Both the position numbers and the translations under genes were made by a program. Positions 3,697 to 63,115 of a DNA stretch of 64,000 nucleotides are shown here, piece by piece. Source of the DNA: Phellopilus nigrolimitatus (lineage: Eukaryota; Basidiomycota; Agaricomycetes; Hymenochaetales; Hymenochaetaceae); contig JAJOHG010000049.1 in NCBI GenBank assembly GCA_021029095.1, positions 124,001 through 188,000 of the forward strand. Direction: 5' to 3'. The number at the start of each line of letters is the position of its first letter. Position 1 is the stretch's first letter. The notes below the pieces were generated by a model. That model was not told the DNA's origin. It did no database searches and worked only from the letters and a program-made list of their open reading frames with translations.

Positions 3697-4074
3697 TAGG
3701 GCATACCGGGAATCGATCCGCGGGTTATAGCTATTTTGCTGATAGCGCAGCGAGTTGTGCTCCGATTTCCATGCTCTTATATTCGAAATGTGCGCATTAT
3801 TCGCGGCTACAATATGCAAAAACACTCATTCAATTTGGTGCAATATTGGTAGCATGAGAGGCAAACAGGTTATCAAAACCAAAAAGAGTCAATTTAGATG
3901 ATCCGTTTGCCTCTCATGCTACCAATATTGCACCAAATTGAATGAGTGTTTTTGCATATTGTAGCCGCGAATAATACGCACATTTCGAATATAAGAGCAT
4001 GGAAATCGGGGCACAGCTCGCTGCGTTATCAGCAAAATAGCTATAACCTGCGGATCGACTCCCGGTATGCCCTA
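3697..4074. mobile_element. Hairpin (fold-back) element with hAT-like ends
   Basis: Two arms of about 170 bp (3697-3866 and 3905-4074) are inverted copies of each other with only a few mismatches, around a 38-bp loop (3867-3904). The ends read TAGGGCATACCGGGA and its reverse complement, sharing TAGGGCATACC with the hAT-type MITE at 7225. The flanks cgaccagc and gagccgca do not match, so there is no 8-bp target duplication. Relative to LTR C copy 2 about 470 bp of target is missing. There is no coding content. Confidence 0.85.
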
Positions 4075-4370: not shown

Positions 4371-4378
4371 GAGGGGAT
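4371..4378. repeat. Left 8-bp target duplication of gene-carrying hAT-type element
   Basis: GAGGGGAT directly precedes TAGGGCTCATCACGAGTCC and is repeated exactly at 6618-6625. The equivalent place in LTR C copy 2 (8705-8712, gaggagat) is a single uninterrupted site. Confidence 0.9.
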
Positions 4379-4568
4379 TAGGGCTCATCACGAGTCCACC
4401 CGTGGGTTGACCCGGACCCGTTGGCGGGTCACCCGTGACGAAAAATCCTCGACCTGGACCCGCCTTGACCTGGATCCGTTGGGACACGGATCCACGGGTC
4501 ACCCAATTCCCACGGTTCCGTGCCACGAAGGTCACGGGTTTGCTCACGGGTTGGCCGTCGACTGGAGC

Positions 4569-5094
4569 CATGGCCTACTGGGCTCTACAACGGCAGCGTG
4601 CACATCTACAACCACGAGACAGGCACGCTCATCAAGACGTTTGAGGTCGCAGAGGTCCCCGTGCGCCCCGTGCGCTTCATTCTGCGCAAGAACTGGTTCG
4701 TCGCTGGCTCGGACGACTTCCAGCTGCGCGTCTTCAACTACAACACGCACGAGAAGGCCGTCGCGTTCAAGGCACACCCGGACTACATCCGGTGCTCGCC
4801 GTCCATCCGACGCTGAGCATTGTCATCACCGGCTGCAATGACATGACGATCAAGGCCTGGGACTGGGACAAACAGTGGAAGTGCATCCGGGTACGTTGTC
4901 CCCCATCCTCGGGCTCTGTGCAGGCGTGCTGACGGCCTCCTAGATTTCTGAGGGACACACGCACTACATCATGAACCTCGCATTCAACCCGAAGGACACC
5001 AACACGTTCGCGTCGTCGTGTCTTGACCGCACGATCAAGATGTGGTCGCTCGGCGCGTCCGCGCCCAACTTCACGCTCGACACCCAGCGCCTCG
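4569..5094 (+). pseudogene. Coatomer subunit beta' (COPB2/Sec27) WD40 fragment 1, captured
   Basis: Reads GLYNGSVHIYNHETGTLIKT, FEVAEVPVRPVRFILRKNWF, VAGSDDFQLRVFNYNTHEKA and AHPDYIRC. After a one-base deletion near 4794 it continues VHPTLSIVITGCNDMTIKAW, an intron (4891-4943, 53 nt), then EGHTHYIMNLAFNPKDTNTF, SSCLDRTIKMWSLGASAPNF. This matches WD repeats 2-5 of the COPI beta' subunit, which forms the outer vesicle coat and binds KKxx cargo. It starts mid-gene and stops after NFTLDT, where unrelated sequence begins. It retains a spliceable intron, so it was copied from genomic DNA. The frameshift and truncation make a functional beta' impossible. Confidence 0.88.
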
Positions 5095-6200
5095 CCCTCG
5101 CCCTTCGAGCCCGACCGCGAACTCACCTCCCTCGCCATCACGCACCACTCCCAGTCCCAGCGGTGCATGTGCACCGGCACCGCGTCGCCCGCAGCCCAGA
5201 TCGGCTCCTTCAACGCCGTCGACCCCGCGCAGGCGGGCTCATCGCCGTCGCCCACCGCCGCCGCCGCTCCAGCATCTCGCTCGCCGTCCCCCAGCCGCCG
5301 TCCAACACGCAGCAGTCGCCCCTGCACGTGCATCTCCCGCACCTGCTCACGCAGCTCACCCGAGCTTCGCGGGCGCGCTCGTCGCGCGCCAGTGCGGGCC
5401 GCTCAAGTTCGAGAAGGACGCCATGTGCTCGAAGCTCAAGAACCTCAAGGCCGAGATCCAGGAGCACTAGCGCGTGGACGACCTCCTGCGCGTCCGCCGC
5501 GGGCAGCCTCGACCTGCTCGCGAGCGTCTCGGTCACCCGGCGCGCGCACGCCCTACCCGTGGAGCAGCCGCCCGGTGCCCCTCAAGCGCGGCACGAAGCG
5601 CGCGCTCGGGCATTGCGATGCGGATCAGTGGTGAGCGCGAGCACTGCGGGCAGTGGCGACGACGCGCGCCGCTCGCCGTCTAAGTGGGCATGCGCCGAGA
5701 CGGCCCGCACCCGCTAGCGCACGGCGAAGGACAAGCCGCCGTCTCCGCAGAAAACGAAGAAGGCGAAGACGGGCCCGAGCATCATCGACACCGACCTGCC
5801 CTCGCTCTCGAGCCTGTTGGACATGGACTACGAGCCCGAGGTGAAGAAGAAGCTCGCATGTGCCGGTGGTGTGCAGTTTCTCGTCTGCATCTCCTCGCGC
5901 GTGCCGCTCGATGTCGGCGCGGTGCCCGTCTCGCGCATGCACACGCACGTCCTTCCTCGTCCACCGTGGAGGCGCATGCGTGCCGTGTCACTTGTACTCT
6001 CGAAACCGCTCGCCATGCTGCGCCTCGCGCGCGCGCATGCCTCCGCGCCGGCTCGCGTCTCCCAGAGGACACAATAGATGAAGAATCCCGAGCAGATACA
6101 CCTGGCATGATGTCCAATGAGGTGCCGCAGATGTTCGACTGGGATAGGAACGGAATCAGCTGGGTGGCAGGTGGGCGCGCGCGGAGCTGAACCACTTCGT
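5095..6200 (+). pseudogene. Unidentified captured coding-like sequence inside Pack element 1
   Basis: GC-rich sequence with broken reading frames. Recognisable protein-like stretches are PSFAGALVARQCGPLKFEKD with KLKNLKAEIQEH (5365-5470, stop then continuing in another frame as a basic region), KPPSPQKTKKAKTGPSIIDT with SSLLDMDYEPEVKKKL (5740-5860), and VPQMFDWDRNGISWVAGGR with LNHFVVEFVAPMEYT (6120-6245). I do not recognise the parent gene or genes. The abrupt switch from COPB2 at 5094 suggests at least two parents. Confidence 0.45.
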
Positions 6201-6617
6201 CGTCGAGTTCGTTGCACCAATGGAATACACGGTTTCACTGTTTCCTCATAGTAGCTAACCATGCTGCTGTCTCAACCGGGACTCAAGTCACTCGATAGAA
6301 TTCCGAATAATGACAATAGAATGAAGATTGCGATCATCGCTTTTGACGTCGCTCTGTATTTCTTTATCCCACGGCGACACTGCCAATTTAAATCATACTA
6401 TACATTTACCATACATACTATGCATACATATAAATACTGCTGCCTTGAAAATTCGTGAATTACCCGCAGGTATTGAAAAAGTGCAAATCCTCGACCCGGA
6501 CCCGCGACAATCTGTTTCCCACGGATCACCCGTTAACGGGTGATCCGTGAATACGGATCAGCAGTCCGGGTTGAATCACGAGTCTCCACGGGTATCAAGG
6601 ACTCGTGATGAGCCCTA

Positions 6618-6625
6618 GAGGGGAT
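6618..6625. repeat. Right 8-bp target duplication of Pack element 1
   Basis: GAGGGGAT follows GGACTCGTGATGAGCCCTA exactly, repeating 4371-4378. After it LTR C sequence resumes (ccctgccaaacgaaggagg). Confidence 0.9.
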
Positions 6626-6693
6626 CCCTGCCAAACGAAGGAGGACTAAGCCGAACGGAGAGGGTTTGAGCCAACACTGCGGGCATCCACTTA

Positions 6694-7115
6694 CACTGCG
6701 GGCATCCACTTAGAATCCCCCCATGGCGAGTCAATTAGATGTTTTATTTAATTGTGGCTTTCTTCACACATCATAGTTTAACACTTTTGGACACTTTTAT
6801 CCAGATCACTTTTTAACTTTGTTATGCCTTTCCTTGAACAGTATATTTTAACTTTCTTTTTGCCTTTGTCCATACAAGAAAGGCTTAACAAAGGGGTGCT
6901 TTGACGAAAACATGCCTTTGTTAAGCCTTTCTTGTGTGGACAAAGGGGGAAAAAAAGTTAAAGTATATTATTTGGAGAAAGGCATATCAAGGTTAAAAAA
7001 CAATTTGGACAAAAGTGTCCAAAAGTGTTAAACTATAATGTGTGGAGAAAGCCACAATTAAATAAAACAACTAATTGACTCGCCATGGGGGGATTCTAAG
7101 TGGATGCCCACAGTG
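6694..7115. mobile_element. Hairpin element with CACTG...CAGTG ends
   Basis: The arms starting CACTGCGGGCATCCACTTAG and ending with its near-complement fold onto each other around a short loop near 6900. The arms contain TTAAGCCTTTCTTG / CAAGAAAGGCTTAA and a CCCCCCATGGCGAGTCAATT / complement pair. The first 19 bp (cactgcgggcatccactta) are present in direct duplicate at 6675-6693, just outside. No clear target duplication was found, so the superfamily is left open (CACTG ends suggest CMC/EnSpm-like). There is no coding content. Confidence 0.75.
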
Positions 7116-7216
7116 TTTAGCTAACTTGACGGTCAGGGATTGCCGCACTGGGGCTAATCCGCACCTGGGGAGTTAGCTCAATTCTGTCACATAATGTAAC
7201 AAGCCTCGTACCCTTG

Positions 7217-7224: not shown

Positions 7225-7680
7225 TAGGGCATACCACGAGTCCCTAGAACTTGTGGGTACCCATGACCCGACCTGGACTACAGATCCGTATTCATGGATC
7301 ACCCGTACACGGGTGAACCGTGGGAAACGGTTTTTTGCGGGTCTGGGTTGAGAATTCTTGATTTTTAATACCCATGGGTAGTTCACAGGTATATTTTTCA
7401 CTGGTTCATTCATTTGTACATATGCTGTATGTATCAACTTGCATACTTCTAACTTATTCATTCAACAACCTAATATAACTTTACATGATATGTGTAATCA
7501 GTTAACACCTGTGAACAAACCCGTGACCTCTGTGACCTGGAACCGTGGGAATTTGGTGACCCGTAGATTTGTGTCCCAACGGGTCCAGGTCAAGCCGGGT
7601 CCGGGTTGAGGATTTTGGGTCACGGGTAGATCCGCCAACAGGTCCGGGTCAAACCGGGGATCGACTCGTGGTATGCCCTA
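7225..7680. mobile_element. hAT-type MITE (456 bp), likely template for the Pack elements
   Basis: Ends TAGGGCATACCACGAGT and ACTCGTGGTATGCCCTA are perfect inverted repeats flanked by the 8-bp duplication CACTAGGC (7217-7224, 7681-7688). The subterminal ~150-180 bp on both sides are rich in ACCCGT / ACGGGT inverted motifs and match the ends of the elements at 4379 and 62666. The core (about 7375-7500) is AT-rich and non-coding. It is inserted just upstream of the ATG of the Harbinger transposase. Confidence 0.9.
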
Positions 7681-8639
7681 CACTAGGCCATCAAACACTT
7701 GCCATGGCTCGTACAGAGGGTAGCAAAGCAAAAGCTATCCGTGCAGCTGTAGAAGCCCGTCAACTACATCGTAGAAAAGCTGCCGCTCTCACTGCTGCCA
7801 TCTCTGGGGGGGCAGTAACAGATCTGTGAGGCGGAGTGGTCTCACAACAAACACAGACAGTGACCTGATGTCAGGACCGAACCTGCGATCAAAGAACGGA
7901 GATGATCGGGAGTCGCTTCGCAGTCGGTTCGACCAGCGAAGGACCAGGGAACGTGGGGAGAGCCCCGATCCGCGAAGGAAACGGAATCACAAGCTGCAGA
8001 TCGGCAGGGAAGGAGATGGGCGGCGAGCCCGAGTGCTGAGTGGCCGAAGTCCGGTAGGTTTGAAGTCGGTCCAAAGGTTCAGAACCGAACCAAGTCGTTC
8101 GACAAGTTCGAGGTTCGTTCGGATTGACGAGAGGTCGCAGGATCGGTCGACACGCAGAGAGAGTGCCGGATGACCCCCGAAGGGAAGGGAGGCCGTCAAG
8201 AAACTTCAGAAGCAAGAGACTTCAAGAAGAAGACTTCAATAATCAGGCTAAGGTACGAAGTACATGTCCAAGTCGTTTATATACAAAAGTCCGTCCTTTC
8301 CTTCCTATCACTAGGCGAGTTTGATGAGTCGTAGAAACTCGCTGTTCGACTGCAGAGTGGTGCGTTCTGCACAAGGGGTGGAGTCCGACGTGAACCGATC
8401 GGAGTGGCAAGTCGCGTAGGCGAGCCGGGCACGAGGTTCGGCGAACGCGGTCACATCTTCGATTCCCGACACTCTCGGCTGGATCTGAATTCGGCACATG
8501 CCTGCGGTGCGTTCTACTCGTGTCTGGGGTATGGGCCGAATCCGGCACCCGGTCCGTCTCTGATCGCGAGCCCAGATGTCACGTGGTTCGTTCATGGTCA
8601 GTCGAGGCCTTCGGACTGGCAACCCGTAGTCTGGAGTTT

Positions 8640-8957
8640 GGAGCCGAGAGGATTGGTCTGGACGAAGGAGGATCAAGCCAAATGAAGAGGGTTCAGGCCG
8701 AACAGAGGAGATCCCTGCCGAACGAAGGATGACCAAGCCGAACGAAGAGGGTTCGGGCCGAACAGAAAGGATCCCTGCCGAACGAAGGAGGGCTGAGCCG
8801 AACGGAGAGGATTTGGGCCGAAGGAAGGGGATCCCTGCCGAACAGAGGGGAGTGATGAAGGGGATCCAAGTCGTACGAGTCCAGAGGAACGAAGGACGAG
8901 AGGTTCGAACCGAACTGAGAGGAATCCCGCCGAACGAAGGGGATCCGAGTCCCATGA
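8640..8957 (+). repeat. Degenerate tandem repeats within LTR C
   Basis: Successive units contain GAAGGAGG, CAAGCCGAACGAAGAGGGTT, GGGCCGAACAGA and GGATCCCTGCCGAAC with point differences. The Pack element 1 target lies in the same unit in copy 1. Confidence 0.65.
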
Positions 8958-60115: not shown

Positions 60116-60399
60116 TACCCAAGCATCAGATCATCGCGGAGCAAGACCGGTTCATCGACGCACGAGTCGAGCAGAGCATCCGCGAGCTGTCCGCCATGCC
60201 GGCGACACTTAGCGAAGGAGGATTCGACCCGGCCTCTATATTCCCTCCATGGGCGACGCGGACAGGGAGAACGACGAGGTACAGCAGCCTTTGTCCGATA
60301 TCACCTTGGATTCCATTATTTCGTCAATAACAACATAATTTGCCCCGAATGCCCACGGCAAGCTGCGAGCGGTAATCGAACTCATGGCACTCCGAGTCC

Positions 60400-60400
<1 letters not shown>
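60116..60400 (+). pseudogene. SNF2/STH1 chromatin-remodelling ATPase, N-terminal (QLQ/HSA-proximal) fragment
   Basis: KHQIIAEQDRFIDARVEQSI, RELSAMPATLSEGGFDPASI, after a frame change MGDADRENDEVQQPLSDITL, a stop, then NAHGKLRAVIELMALRVHS. The RIxELxxMPATxGEGG block followed by LRAxIELKALRV is the segment just before the HSA domain of SWI/SNF ATPases. It is cut off before the HSA and ATPase domains and joined to RVB1 sequence. Confidence 0.65.
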
Positions 60401-61620
<1,220 letters not shown>

Positions 61621-62640: not shown

Positions 62641-62822
62641 CATCTAGTGTCGCTTCCTCTTGGCCTAGGGCATACCACGAGTCCTTGATACCCGTGGGTA
62701 CCCGTGACCCGACCCGGACTGCAGATCCGTATTCACGGATCACCCGTTGACGGGTGATCCGTGGGAAACGGATTGTTGCGGGTCCAGGTCGGGGATTTGC
62801 AAATTTTCAATACCCGCGGGTA

Positions 62823-63115
62823 TTTTCCATGTCGCGGTCTTCCACTTGGACCTGCCATTGCTCGTCAGCGGCAGCGAGGACGGCACTGTCAAGCTCTGGA
62901 ACAGCGGCACGTACTGCCTCGAGAACACACTCAGTTACGCGCTCGAGCGCACCTGGTGCGTCGCCGTGCACCCGCACGCGAACAACATCGCATTCGGCTT
63001 CGACGAGGGTCGTCAAGCTCGGCCGCGACGAGCCCGCGCTCAGCATGGACCCTGCCGGCAAGCTCGTCTACACGCAGGCCGCCATGGACGTCGAGATGCG
63101 TAAGGGCCAGTGCAT
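62823..63115 (+). pseudogene. Coatomer subunit beta' (COPB2) WD40 fragment 2, captured
   Basis: VAVFHLDLPLLVSGSEDGTV, KLWNSGTYCLENTLSYALER, TWCVAVHPHANNIAFGFDEG, then after a short deletion VVKLGRDEPALSMDPAGKLV, MDVEMRKG. This is the WD repeat 6-7 region and start of the second propeller of beta' COP, lying about 50-60 residues after the end of fragment 1 at 5094. The frame breaks at about 63008. Confidence 0.85.

What the first reader, a model, noticed from the sequence alone, without database searches (positions are those of the whole stretch)
4371..6625. Gene-carrying hAT-type (Pack-type) element with perfect ends and 8-bp target duplication
Seen directly: a perfect 19-bp inverted repeat (TAGGGCTCATCACGAGTCC) encloses 2239 bp and is flanked by GAGGGGAT on both sides. 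The outer parts match the ends of the 456-bp MITE at 7225, while the core is a piece of coatomer beta' with its intron plus unidentified coding-like sequence. The second copy of the target LTR (8697-8726) shows the site uninterrupted. Known: TAGGG ends and 8-bp duplications are hAT hallmarks, and gene capture by TIR elements is well known as Pack-MULEs/Pack-TYPE elements in plants. Inference: this fungus has a Pack-hAT family that shuffles exons.
Basis: partly seen in the sequence, partly recalled or inferred. Interest (0 to 1): 0.88.

Follow-up and report, generated by a model that had tools for sequence, protein, structure and literature searches.

The report
Gene-fragment-carrying hAT transposon family in fungus
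In a wood-decay fungus, a cut-and-paste transposon has swallowed pieces of several unrelated host genes, and sister elements with the same ends carry other gene combinations, so this is a real gene-shuffling transposon family of a kind best known from plants.

Summary
Window 4379-6617 is a 2239-bp element with perfect 19-bp terminal inverted repeats and an 8-bp target duplication, in a repeat whose second window copy is uninterrupted. A second copy on contig C605 (99.4% identical) has another 8-bp duplication, so the whole mosaic has moved. The core is four host-gene fragments in series: coatomer beta' (intron kept), HMG-box factor, Rua1-like regulator, Sec24; their parent genes lie on other contigs. 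Of 40 scored right ends, 31 have a facing partner end, 28 of them 1.5-3.8 kb away; 17 of 18 elements with both flanks held have perfect 8-bp duplications. Other cores carry Hsp70 + NAD kinase + Sec24, septin, a USP7-like protease, or carbamoyl-phosphate synthetase + a WD40 gene. hAT transposase genes sit beside the same left end; one 6.6-kb locus has both ends. So this is a Pack-type hAT family. Single-gene capture by fungal hAT elements (histone H3; TET/JBP) and Pack-hAT in plants and animals are published; my searches listed no combinatorial basidiomycete family. Expression and benefit are unproven; one deposited gene model runs through an element.

The parts
4371..4378 (.). Left copy of the 8-bp target-site duplication GAGGGGAT
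4379..4551 (+). Left (L) terminal and subterminal sequence beginning with the 19-bp TIR; shared with the sister elements and with hAT-transposase loci
4559..5080 (+). Captured coatomer beta' (COPB2) WD40 fragment, 91% to host gene C23:52745-53265 (allele C612); one 1-bp frameshift deletion
4891..4943 (+). COPB2 intron kept inside the captured piece (DNA-level capture)
5076..5297 (+). Captured fragment of an HMG-box transcription factor gene, 88.8% to host C312:155690-155921; 5-bp CTCGA overlap with the COPB2 end
5308..5857 (+). Captured fragment of a Rua1-like regulator gene (PF14616), 80.5% to host C179:158297-158899 (allele C626)
5858..6104 (.). Core stretch without a located source; no match listed in the genome apart from the sister copy on C605
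6105..6366 (+). Captured Sec24 fragment, 89.2% and 91.8% to host C57:410944-411252
6372..6445 (+). Right subterminal segment shared with the C13-, C68- and C335-type elements
6458..6617 (+). Right (R) terminal sequence ending with the inverted copy of the 19-bp TIR
6618..6625 (.). Right copy of the 8-bp target-site duplication GAGGGGAT
7225..7680 (.). 456-bp MITE of the same family, 8-bp duplication CACTAGGC
8410..8764 (+). Paralogous copy of the target repeat without the insertion (empty site)

Best explanation
The feature is a non-autonomous, gene-fragment-carrying (Pack-type) hAT transposon. Host DNA was copied into the element as genomic DNA and joined end to end between two hAT ends. The finished mosaic then moved as one unit by cut-and-paste, leaving an 8-bp duplication at each new site. 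SHOWN: ends, duplications, the empty site, two insertions of the same mosaic at unrelated sites, different cores between the same ends, intron retention, parent genes on other contigs, and hAT transposase genes next to the same left end (one 6.6-kb locus has both ends). INFERRED: that this transposase moves the gene-carrying copies in trans, and that capture happens when a gap inside an element is filled by template switching to host genes. In favour of that capture route are intron retention, direct fragment-to-fragment joints, a 5-bp overlap at the COPB2/HMG joint, one captured gene lying inside another (C290), and no leftover internal TIR in the focal core.
For: Second copy C605:4492-14351: same mosaic, 99.4% identical over 2067 bp, own duplication TAAAGTAG, split by a ~7.6-kb insertion with a 5-bp duplication. 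Perfect 8-bp duplications in 17 of 18 elements with both flanks held; among the 8 paired by end homology before any flank was compared (C36, C278, C25, C55 twice, C69, C20, C423), 7 of 8 are perfect. 31 of 40 scored R ends have a facing partner end. Different cores: HSP70 PF00012 7e-54, septin PF00735 7.8e-41, UCH PF00443 3.4e-11; NAD kinase PF01513 8.8e-12; Sec24 1e-15; USP7 1.5e-13; CPSase_L_D3 3.7e-20 and WD40 9e-7. The septin element has three copies with three different duplications. Transposase: the C4 L end is followed by a gene whose dimerisation domain matches PF05699 at 23.2 bits, cut-off 21.4; its 228-aa main frame has relatives labelled hAT. With flank in the query, homology starts at the element's terminal base (within 1 base) at C622, C423 (two) and C603, all of which encode the relative; C423 has R ends too. 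Parents read: COPB2, HMG, Rua1-like, Sec24. The 17 duplications lean to the recalled hAT target pattern nTnnnnAn, 16 of 34 positions against 25% expected, p 0.005.
Against: The only transposase-bearing locus with both ends held (C423) has an imperfect duplication, 6 of 8. The C4 copy runs off its contig before an R end. Nothing shows trans-mobilisation directly. Nine of 40 R ends found no partner, and many ends in the partly held loci found no partner carrying their duplication. Part of the core (5858-6104) has no known source. One joint was examined base by base, without a chance control, so the gap-filling route is weaker than the rest.
Confidence: 0.94

Rival explanations
1. The ends belong to the KDZ (Kyakuja/Dileera/Zisupton) superfamily, also abundant in this genome and, as I recall, also making about 8-bp duplications; the gene-carrying elements would be KDZ derivatives.
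For: 73 KDZ (PF18758) match rows in the genome. On C146 an unpaired R end (67346-67502) faces a KDZ domain 6.3 kb away (60232-61053); on C35 a KDZ fragment ends 22 bp outside a family end.
Against: None of the 12 KDZ loci held (1.5 kb either side, less at a contig end) shows these ends at E 1e-5, though full KDZ elements may be longer than that. Five places that do carry the L end encode a hAT transposase or its close relative.
Confidence: 0.03
2. Capture works by fusion of two elements inserted close together in or near a gene, with remobilisation of the outer ends (the route proposed for plant Pack-TYPE elements, PMC8903248), not by gap filling.
For: Nesting of family members occurs here: C619:80808-81182 lies inside an Hsp70 + NAD kinase + Sec24 element, and several loci have two ends 43-49 bp apart. 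The published model covers hAT (passages read).
Against: No internal TIR remnant with up to 5 mismatches inside the focal core. Sources lie on different contigs and are joined directly. The NAD kinase fragment of C290 lies between two Sec24 pieces that are 6 bases apart in the host gene (476-770 and 777-1441 in piece coordinates). The COPB2/HMG joint shares 5 bp.
Confidence: 0.2
3. The captured pieces are kept because they make useful chimeric proteins or regulatory RNAs.
For: Deposited protein P0039 of this species is a PF20151 protein followed by what reads as translated L-end sequence, then HMG and Rua1-like fragments; residues 666-857 are 100% identical to the C335 element. P0029 joins an EF-Tu-type GTPase part to a Rua1-like fragment. 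24 of 32 COPB2 exon differences from the host fall on third codon positions.
Against: Focal frames are broken: a 1-bp deletion in COPB2 and many stops. Between the two host alleles all 15 differences in the same exon parts are third-position changes, so much of that bias can come from the host lineage. Gene models are predictions, not transcripts.
Confidence: 0.1
4. Ordinary segmental duplication or assembly artefact rather than transposition.
For: The assembly contains mirror-image duplications (C423, C131) and allelic contigs (C23/C612, C179/C626).
Against: Same element, different duplications: C434/C605, C290/C346, C608/C611/C625; empty site present.
Confidence: 0.01

Closest known systems
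Pack-TYPE / Pack-hAT elements of plants (Gisby and Catoni 2022, PMC8903248; passages read)
   Same: Non-autonomous TIR elements with TIR + 8-bp duplication (hAT) that carry and combine host coding DNA.
   Different: Here a basidiomycete fungus; the focal joints look like direct gene-to-gene switches without end remnants.
Pack-TIRs of animals, mostly hAT (PMC8277862; passages read)
   Same: hAT ends around host DNA; gap filling with microhomology proposed; chimeras with neighbouring genes.
   Different: That survey found four multicopy Pack-TIRs in its reference genomes; here several gene-carrying elements are multicopy with distinct duplications, with several genes per element.
hAT transduplication of histone H3 in Dothideomycetes (Manning 2013 PMC3538342; PMC6710886; passages read)
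   Same: Fungal hAT elements, host gene between the TIRs, amplified; 8-bp duplications in the second paper. The Pyrenophora paper calls its case the first in fungi; it also reports a second, Tc1/Mariner case.
   Different: One identified host gene (plus an ORF of unknown function in Pyrenophora), an intronless copy in P. fijiensis; here ten host genes, an intron kept, combinations differing between sisters, another phylum.
DNA transposons with a captured TET/JBP gene, including hAT7 of rust fungi (PMC12730594; passages read)
   Same: Basidiomycete hAT elements that carry a captured gene.
   Different: One complete gene beside a transposase, 7-bp duplications; here non-autonomous mosaics of fragments, 8-bp duplications.
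Gene-capturing Helitrons of Pleurotus (PMC4289320; listing only)
   Same: Capture and spread of host gene pieces in a basidiomycete.
   Different: Rolling-circle elements, without TIR and duplication (recalled); here cut-and-paste hAT hallmarks.

Membership tests
hAT superfamily | 8-bp target-site duplication | tested here: met
   17 of 18 perfect; C423 6 of 8
hAT superfamily | TIR starting with C/T-A-G/A-N-G (consensus recalled) | tested here: met
   TAGGG or TAGAG at both ends of all 12 elements whose two ends are held in full; in the 6 one end is held in full and fits
hAT superfamily | Related elements encode a hAT transposase with the C-terminal dimerisation domain | tested here: met
   C4: PF05699 23.2 bits, cut-off 21.4; L end beside the transposase or its relative at C4, C622, C423 (two), C603, 5 of 12 places in a capped list; both ends at C423. 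The seven PF05699 hits show no such ends in the flanks held
hAT superfamily | Target preference nTnnnnAn (recalled) | tested here: inconclusive
   Leans that way: 16 of 34 positions, p 0.005 against 25%; few sites
Pack-TYPE elements | Non-autonomous: no transposase between the TIRs | tested here: met
   No transposase domain in the 14 of 29 listed focal ORFs that I scanned; core assigned to host genes except 247 bp and short joints
Pack-TYPE elements | Carries host gene fragments with an identifiable parent | tested here: met
   COPB2, HMG, Rua1-like, Sec24 parents read
Pack-TYPE elements | Same ends, different cores in the genome | tested here: met
Pack-TYPE elements | Moved together with the cargo | tested here: met
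   C605 copy with its own duplication
Pack-TYPE elements | Captured sequence expressed or contributing to genes | not testable with these tools
   Only gene models seen
KDZ superfamily | KDZ transposase between these ends | tested here: inconclusive
   0 of 12 held KDZ loci show these ends within the 1.5 kb held; longer distances not held; one unpaired R end on C146 faces a KDZ domain 6.3 kb away

The most novel reading that the evidence does not exclude
A mushroom-forming fungus runs a young, combinatorial exon-shuffling system: a hAT family that keeps adding fragments of housekeeping and transcription-factor genes to the same ends, whose transposase-bearing copies may themselves carry a host fragment (Sec24 in C4), and whose insertions into genes yield expressed chimeric genes such as the model behind P0039.
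Probability: 0.25. Interest if true: 0.82.

Novelty: new variant of a known kind. Interest (0 to 1): 0.62.

Why it matters
Gene capture by cut-and-paste transposons is studied mainly in plants, and the fungal hAT cases that I found in print concern single genes (histone H3, TET/JBP). A family with many cores, traceable parent genes, nearly identical copies and a transposase-bearing relative in one compact genome makes the open question of how such elements acquire genes directly testable, because order and joints of captures can be read. It also warns that deposited fungal gene models can be transposon mosaics.

Tried and rejected
Strict end-pairing by TIR (up to 3 mismatches) and duplication in the held pieces found only 5 elements; pairing by end homology was needed. 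The PF05699 search found 7 loci, none with these ends in the held flanks, and did not list C4; the right transposase came from reading the inside of the C4 end. KDZ was considered as the source of the ends and set aside, see the rival. A strict rule that the outermost fragment is youngest was considered and dropped: identities in the focal element fit it (COPB2 91%, HMG 89%, Rua1-like 80%), but NAD kinase sits inside Sec24 in C290 and gene rates differ. Dating by the 91% COPB2 identity was dropped because host alleles already differ at 15 of 147 third positions; the 8 changes at 296 first and second positions suggest a younger capture. No source was found for 5858-6104. The USP7 parent was not searched. 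Passages of PMC10853768, PMC12878558, PMC8647823 and PMC10410303 gave no further precedent; the other titles were seen in listings only, and several lists were cut (for example 10 of 62, 20 of 30).

Full report
OBSERVATION. Joining the two flanks with one copy of the duplication gives a stretch that aligns at 89% over 356 bp to window 8410-8764, the second copy of the target repeat without the element.

WHERE IT LIES. The tool holds the genome of the window (56.4 Mb, 635 contigs; the window is C434:124001-188000). Contig C335 is 292,216 bases long, and a deposited Phellopilus nigrolimitatus protein (P0039) is listed from a 292,216-base contig and is 100% identical to C335 over 192 residues. 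A published table gives 56.7 Mb for that species (passage). So the fungus is P. nigrolimitatus (Hymenochaetales). Allelic contigs exist (C23/C612 97% over 3.5 kb; C179/C626 96%), so copy counts may include alleles.

THE MOSAIC. Searching the core against the genome gave one full-length second copy, on C605. It is 99.4% identical over 2067 bp, has its own perfect duplication TAAAGTAG in unrelated flanks, and is split by a ~7.6-kb insertion with a 5-bp duplication and TGTTA/TAACA edges, as in an LTR element. The complete mosaic has therefore transposed. Its parts, against parent genes that I read: COPB2 4559-5080 at 91.1% (C23), HMG-box factor 5076-5297 at 88.8% (C312), Rua1-like regulator 5308-5857 at 80.5% (C179), Sec24 6105-6366 at 89.2 and 91.8% (C57). 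A stretch of 247 bp, 5858-6104, has no source. COPB2 identity rests, and its intron 4891-4943 is kept, so DNA and not a transcript was captured. The COPB2/HMG joint shares CTCGA in both parents. A COPB2 frameshift (1-bp deletion) and 8 differences at 296 first and second codon positions, against 0 between the alleles in the same exon parts, show relaxed constraint. 24 of 32 differences are third-position ones; the alleles themselves differ at 15 of 147 third positions, so the capture is probably younger than 91% identity suggests.

THE FAMILY. The TIR with at most one mismatch occurs 70 times, the reversed control 0. The left and right ends gave 166 and 146 first-look candidates, of which 40 each were scored. 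Of the 40 R ends, 31 have within 12 kb a facing partner end (left-end homology, the TIR pattern, or the C13 end): 28 span 1.5-3.8 kb, two are the 6.6-kb C423 loci, one is the interrupted C605 copy; 9 have none. Two of the 31 are mirror images on C423 and two on C131, so independent insertions are fewer. Both flanks were held for 18 elements (counting the C608/C611/C625 set, the C13 element and the window MITE): 17 perfect duplications, all different, and one 6 of 8. Some of these were first found by requiring the duplication; the 8 paired by end homology before the flanks were compared (C36, C278, C25, C55 twice, C69, C20, C423) gave 7 of 8.

OTHER CORES. C290 (3059 bp) and C346 (3794 bp): HSP70, NAD kinase, Sec24; the best matches outside known element copies are C555:615984 at 93% and C177:11783 at 94%. 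In C290, NAD kinase lies between two Sec24 pieces that are 6 bases apart in the host gene. C608, C611 and C625: septin, Rua1-like, Sec24, with three different duplications; likely septin parent C90:366170-367111 at 90%. C1: USP7-like protease, COPB2, HMG, Rua1-like. C20 and C631: carbamoyl-phosphate synthetase and a WD40 protein (ARPC1-like by recall), best other matches C2:447508 at 95% and C555:987309 at 84%. C13 and C335: HMG and Rua1-like. That makes ten host genes. Parents were read for four; for septin, HSP70, NAD kinase, CPSase and WD40 only the best-matching places are known; the USP7 parent was not sought. The HMG-box fragment in C1 is weak on its own (best structure match E 0.03) and rests on its 83% match to the C312 gene.

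THE TRANSPOSASE. The C4 end (90% to the focal L end over 113 bp) runs into a hAT transposase gene on the other strand, whose dimerisation domain passes the Pfam cut-off; the 228-aa main frame has no Pfam match itself but has relatives labelled hAT in other basidiomycetes. With 200 bases of flank in the query, homology stopped at the terminal base (within 1 base) at C622, C423 (two) and C603, which also encode the relative. That is 5 of the 12 transposase-related places; one search scored 40 of 166 candidates, so the other 7 are undecided. At C423 both ends are present, 6592 bp apart, duplication 6 of 8. The C4 copy runs off its contig at 97,095; a Sec24 fragment at 82% lies at its far side, so a transposase-bearing copy may carry cargo, unless an unseen end lies between.

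KDZ CHECK. KDZ transposases are abundant (73 match rows). The 12 loci held show no such ends within 1.5 kb, which is not decisive for long elements; one unpaired R end on C146 faces a KDZ domain 6.3 kb away, and on C35 a KDZ fragment lies just outside a family end. The hAT evidence is direct, so KDZ is kept only as a remote rival.

HOW IT WORKS. Shown: hAT hallmarks, cargo moved with the element, combinatorial cores, DNA-level capture. Inferred: transposase in trans; capture by gap filling with template switching. Element fusion after tandem insertion (PMC8903248) remains a rival. The focal core has no internal TIR remnant with up to 5 mismatches and no transposase domain in the 14 of 29 listed ORFs scanned.

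EFFECT ON GENES. P0039 is a deposited model that begins with a PF20151 protein, runs through what reads as translated L-end sequence (compare the C69 frame) and continues in HMG and Rua1-like cargo; that stretch of C335 was held only in part. P0029 joins an EF-Tu-type GTPase part to a Rua1-like piece. These are predictions; expression is unknown.

LITERATURE. hAT capture of histone H3 in Dothideomycetes, TET/JBP genes in several DNA transposons including hAT7 of rust fungi, Pack-hAT in plants and Pack-TIRs in animals are in print; I read passages of these. Ten searches of open-licence papers listed no Pack-hAT family in a basidiomycete; lists were cut in some, and subscription papers were not searched. 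'Pack-hAT' itself occurs in two papers, one on plants and one on animals.

VERDICT. Real, well supported, and a new variant of a known kind: a Pack-type hAT family, here combining many host genes in a basidiomycete.

Noticed in passing
window 62666-62825: Another right-type end of the same family; the element extends to the right towards or past the window's edge and no partner was found.
   Followed up: partly
window 3697-4074: A near-palindromic MITE with TAGGGCATACC ends; its two 8-bp flanks differ (CGACCAGC, GAGCCGCA), while a similar 387-bp copy at C35:14434-14820 has a perfect duplication CGAGCTAA. The corresponding stretch of the second repeat copy (about 7943-8409) is missing here.
   Followed up: partly
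window 6693-7116: A 210-bp inverted repeat with 4 nt between the arms (88% complementary), a foldback element between the focal element and the MITE.
   Followed up: no
C335:141184-143793 (L015 in part): Deposited protein P0039 runs from a PF20151 gene through what reads as the L end of an element into HMG and Rua1-like cargo: a candidate chimeric gene, model only.
   Followed up: partly
P0029: Deposited P. nigrolimitatus protein that joins an EF-Tu-type GTPase part to a Rua1-like fragment, possibly another gene-carrying element.
   Followed up: partly
C423:5721-19284: Two transposase-bearing copies lie in mirror image about position 12502.5: a real palindrome or an assembly artefact.
   Followed up: no
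C35:527819-529124 (L013): A broken COPB2 copy (86-89%) besides the intact host gene pair; origin unknown, no family ends in the 3.5 kb held.
   Followed up: no
C605, C567, C38, C518, C533, C13, C335: HSP70 sequence (about 84-85%) starts at the base next to a TAGAGCTC-type end at several loci whose ends share the same outer 8-mers: perhaps a larger duplicated unit with nested ends.
   Followed up: no
C4:91842-92041, C390:257655-257854, C36:12363-12562: The 200 bases outside the C4 transposase element occur 100% identical at two other places without the element: repeat copies or empty sites.
   Followed up: no
C13:416801-418555 (L090): Long retrotransposon-like open frame (reverse transcriptase/RNase H type, by recall of motifs) next to a gene-carrying element.
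   Followed up: no
genome: 73 KDZ transposase match rows, an abundant second DNA-transposon family.
   Followed up: no
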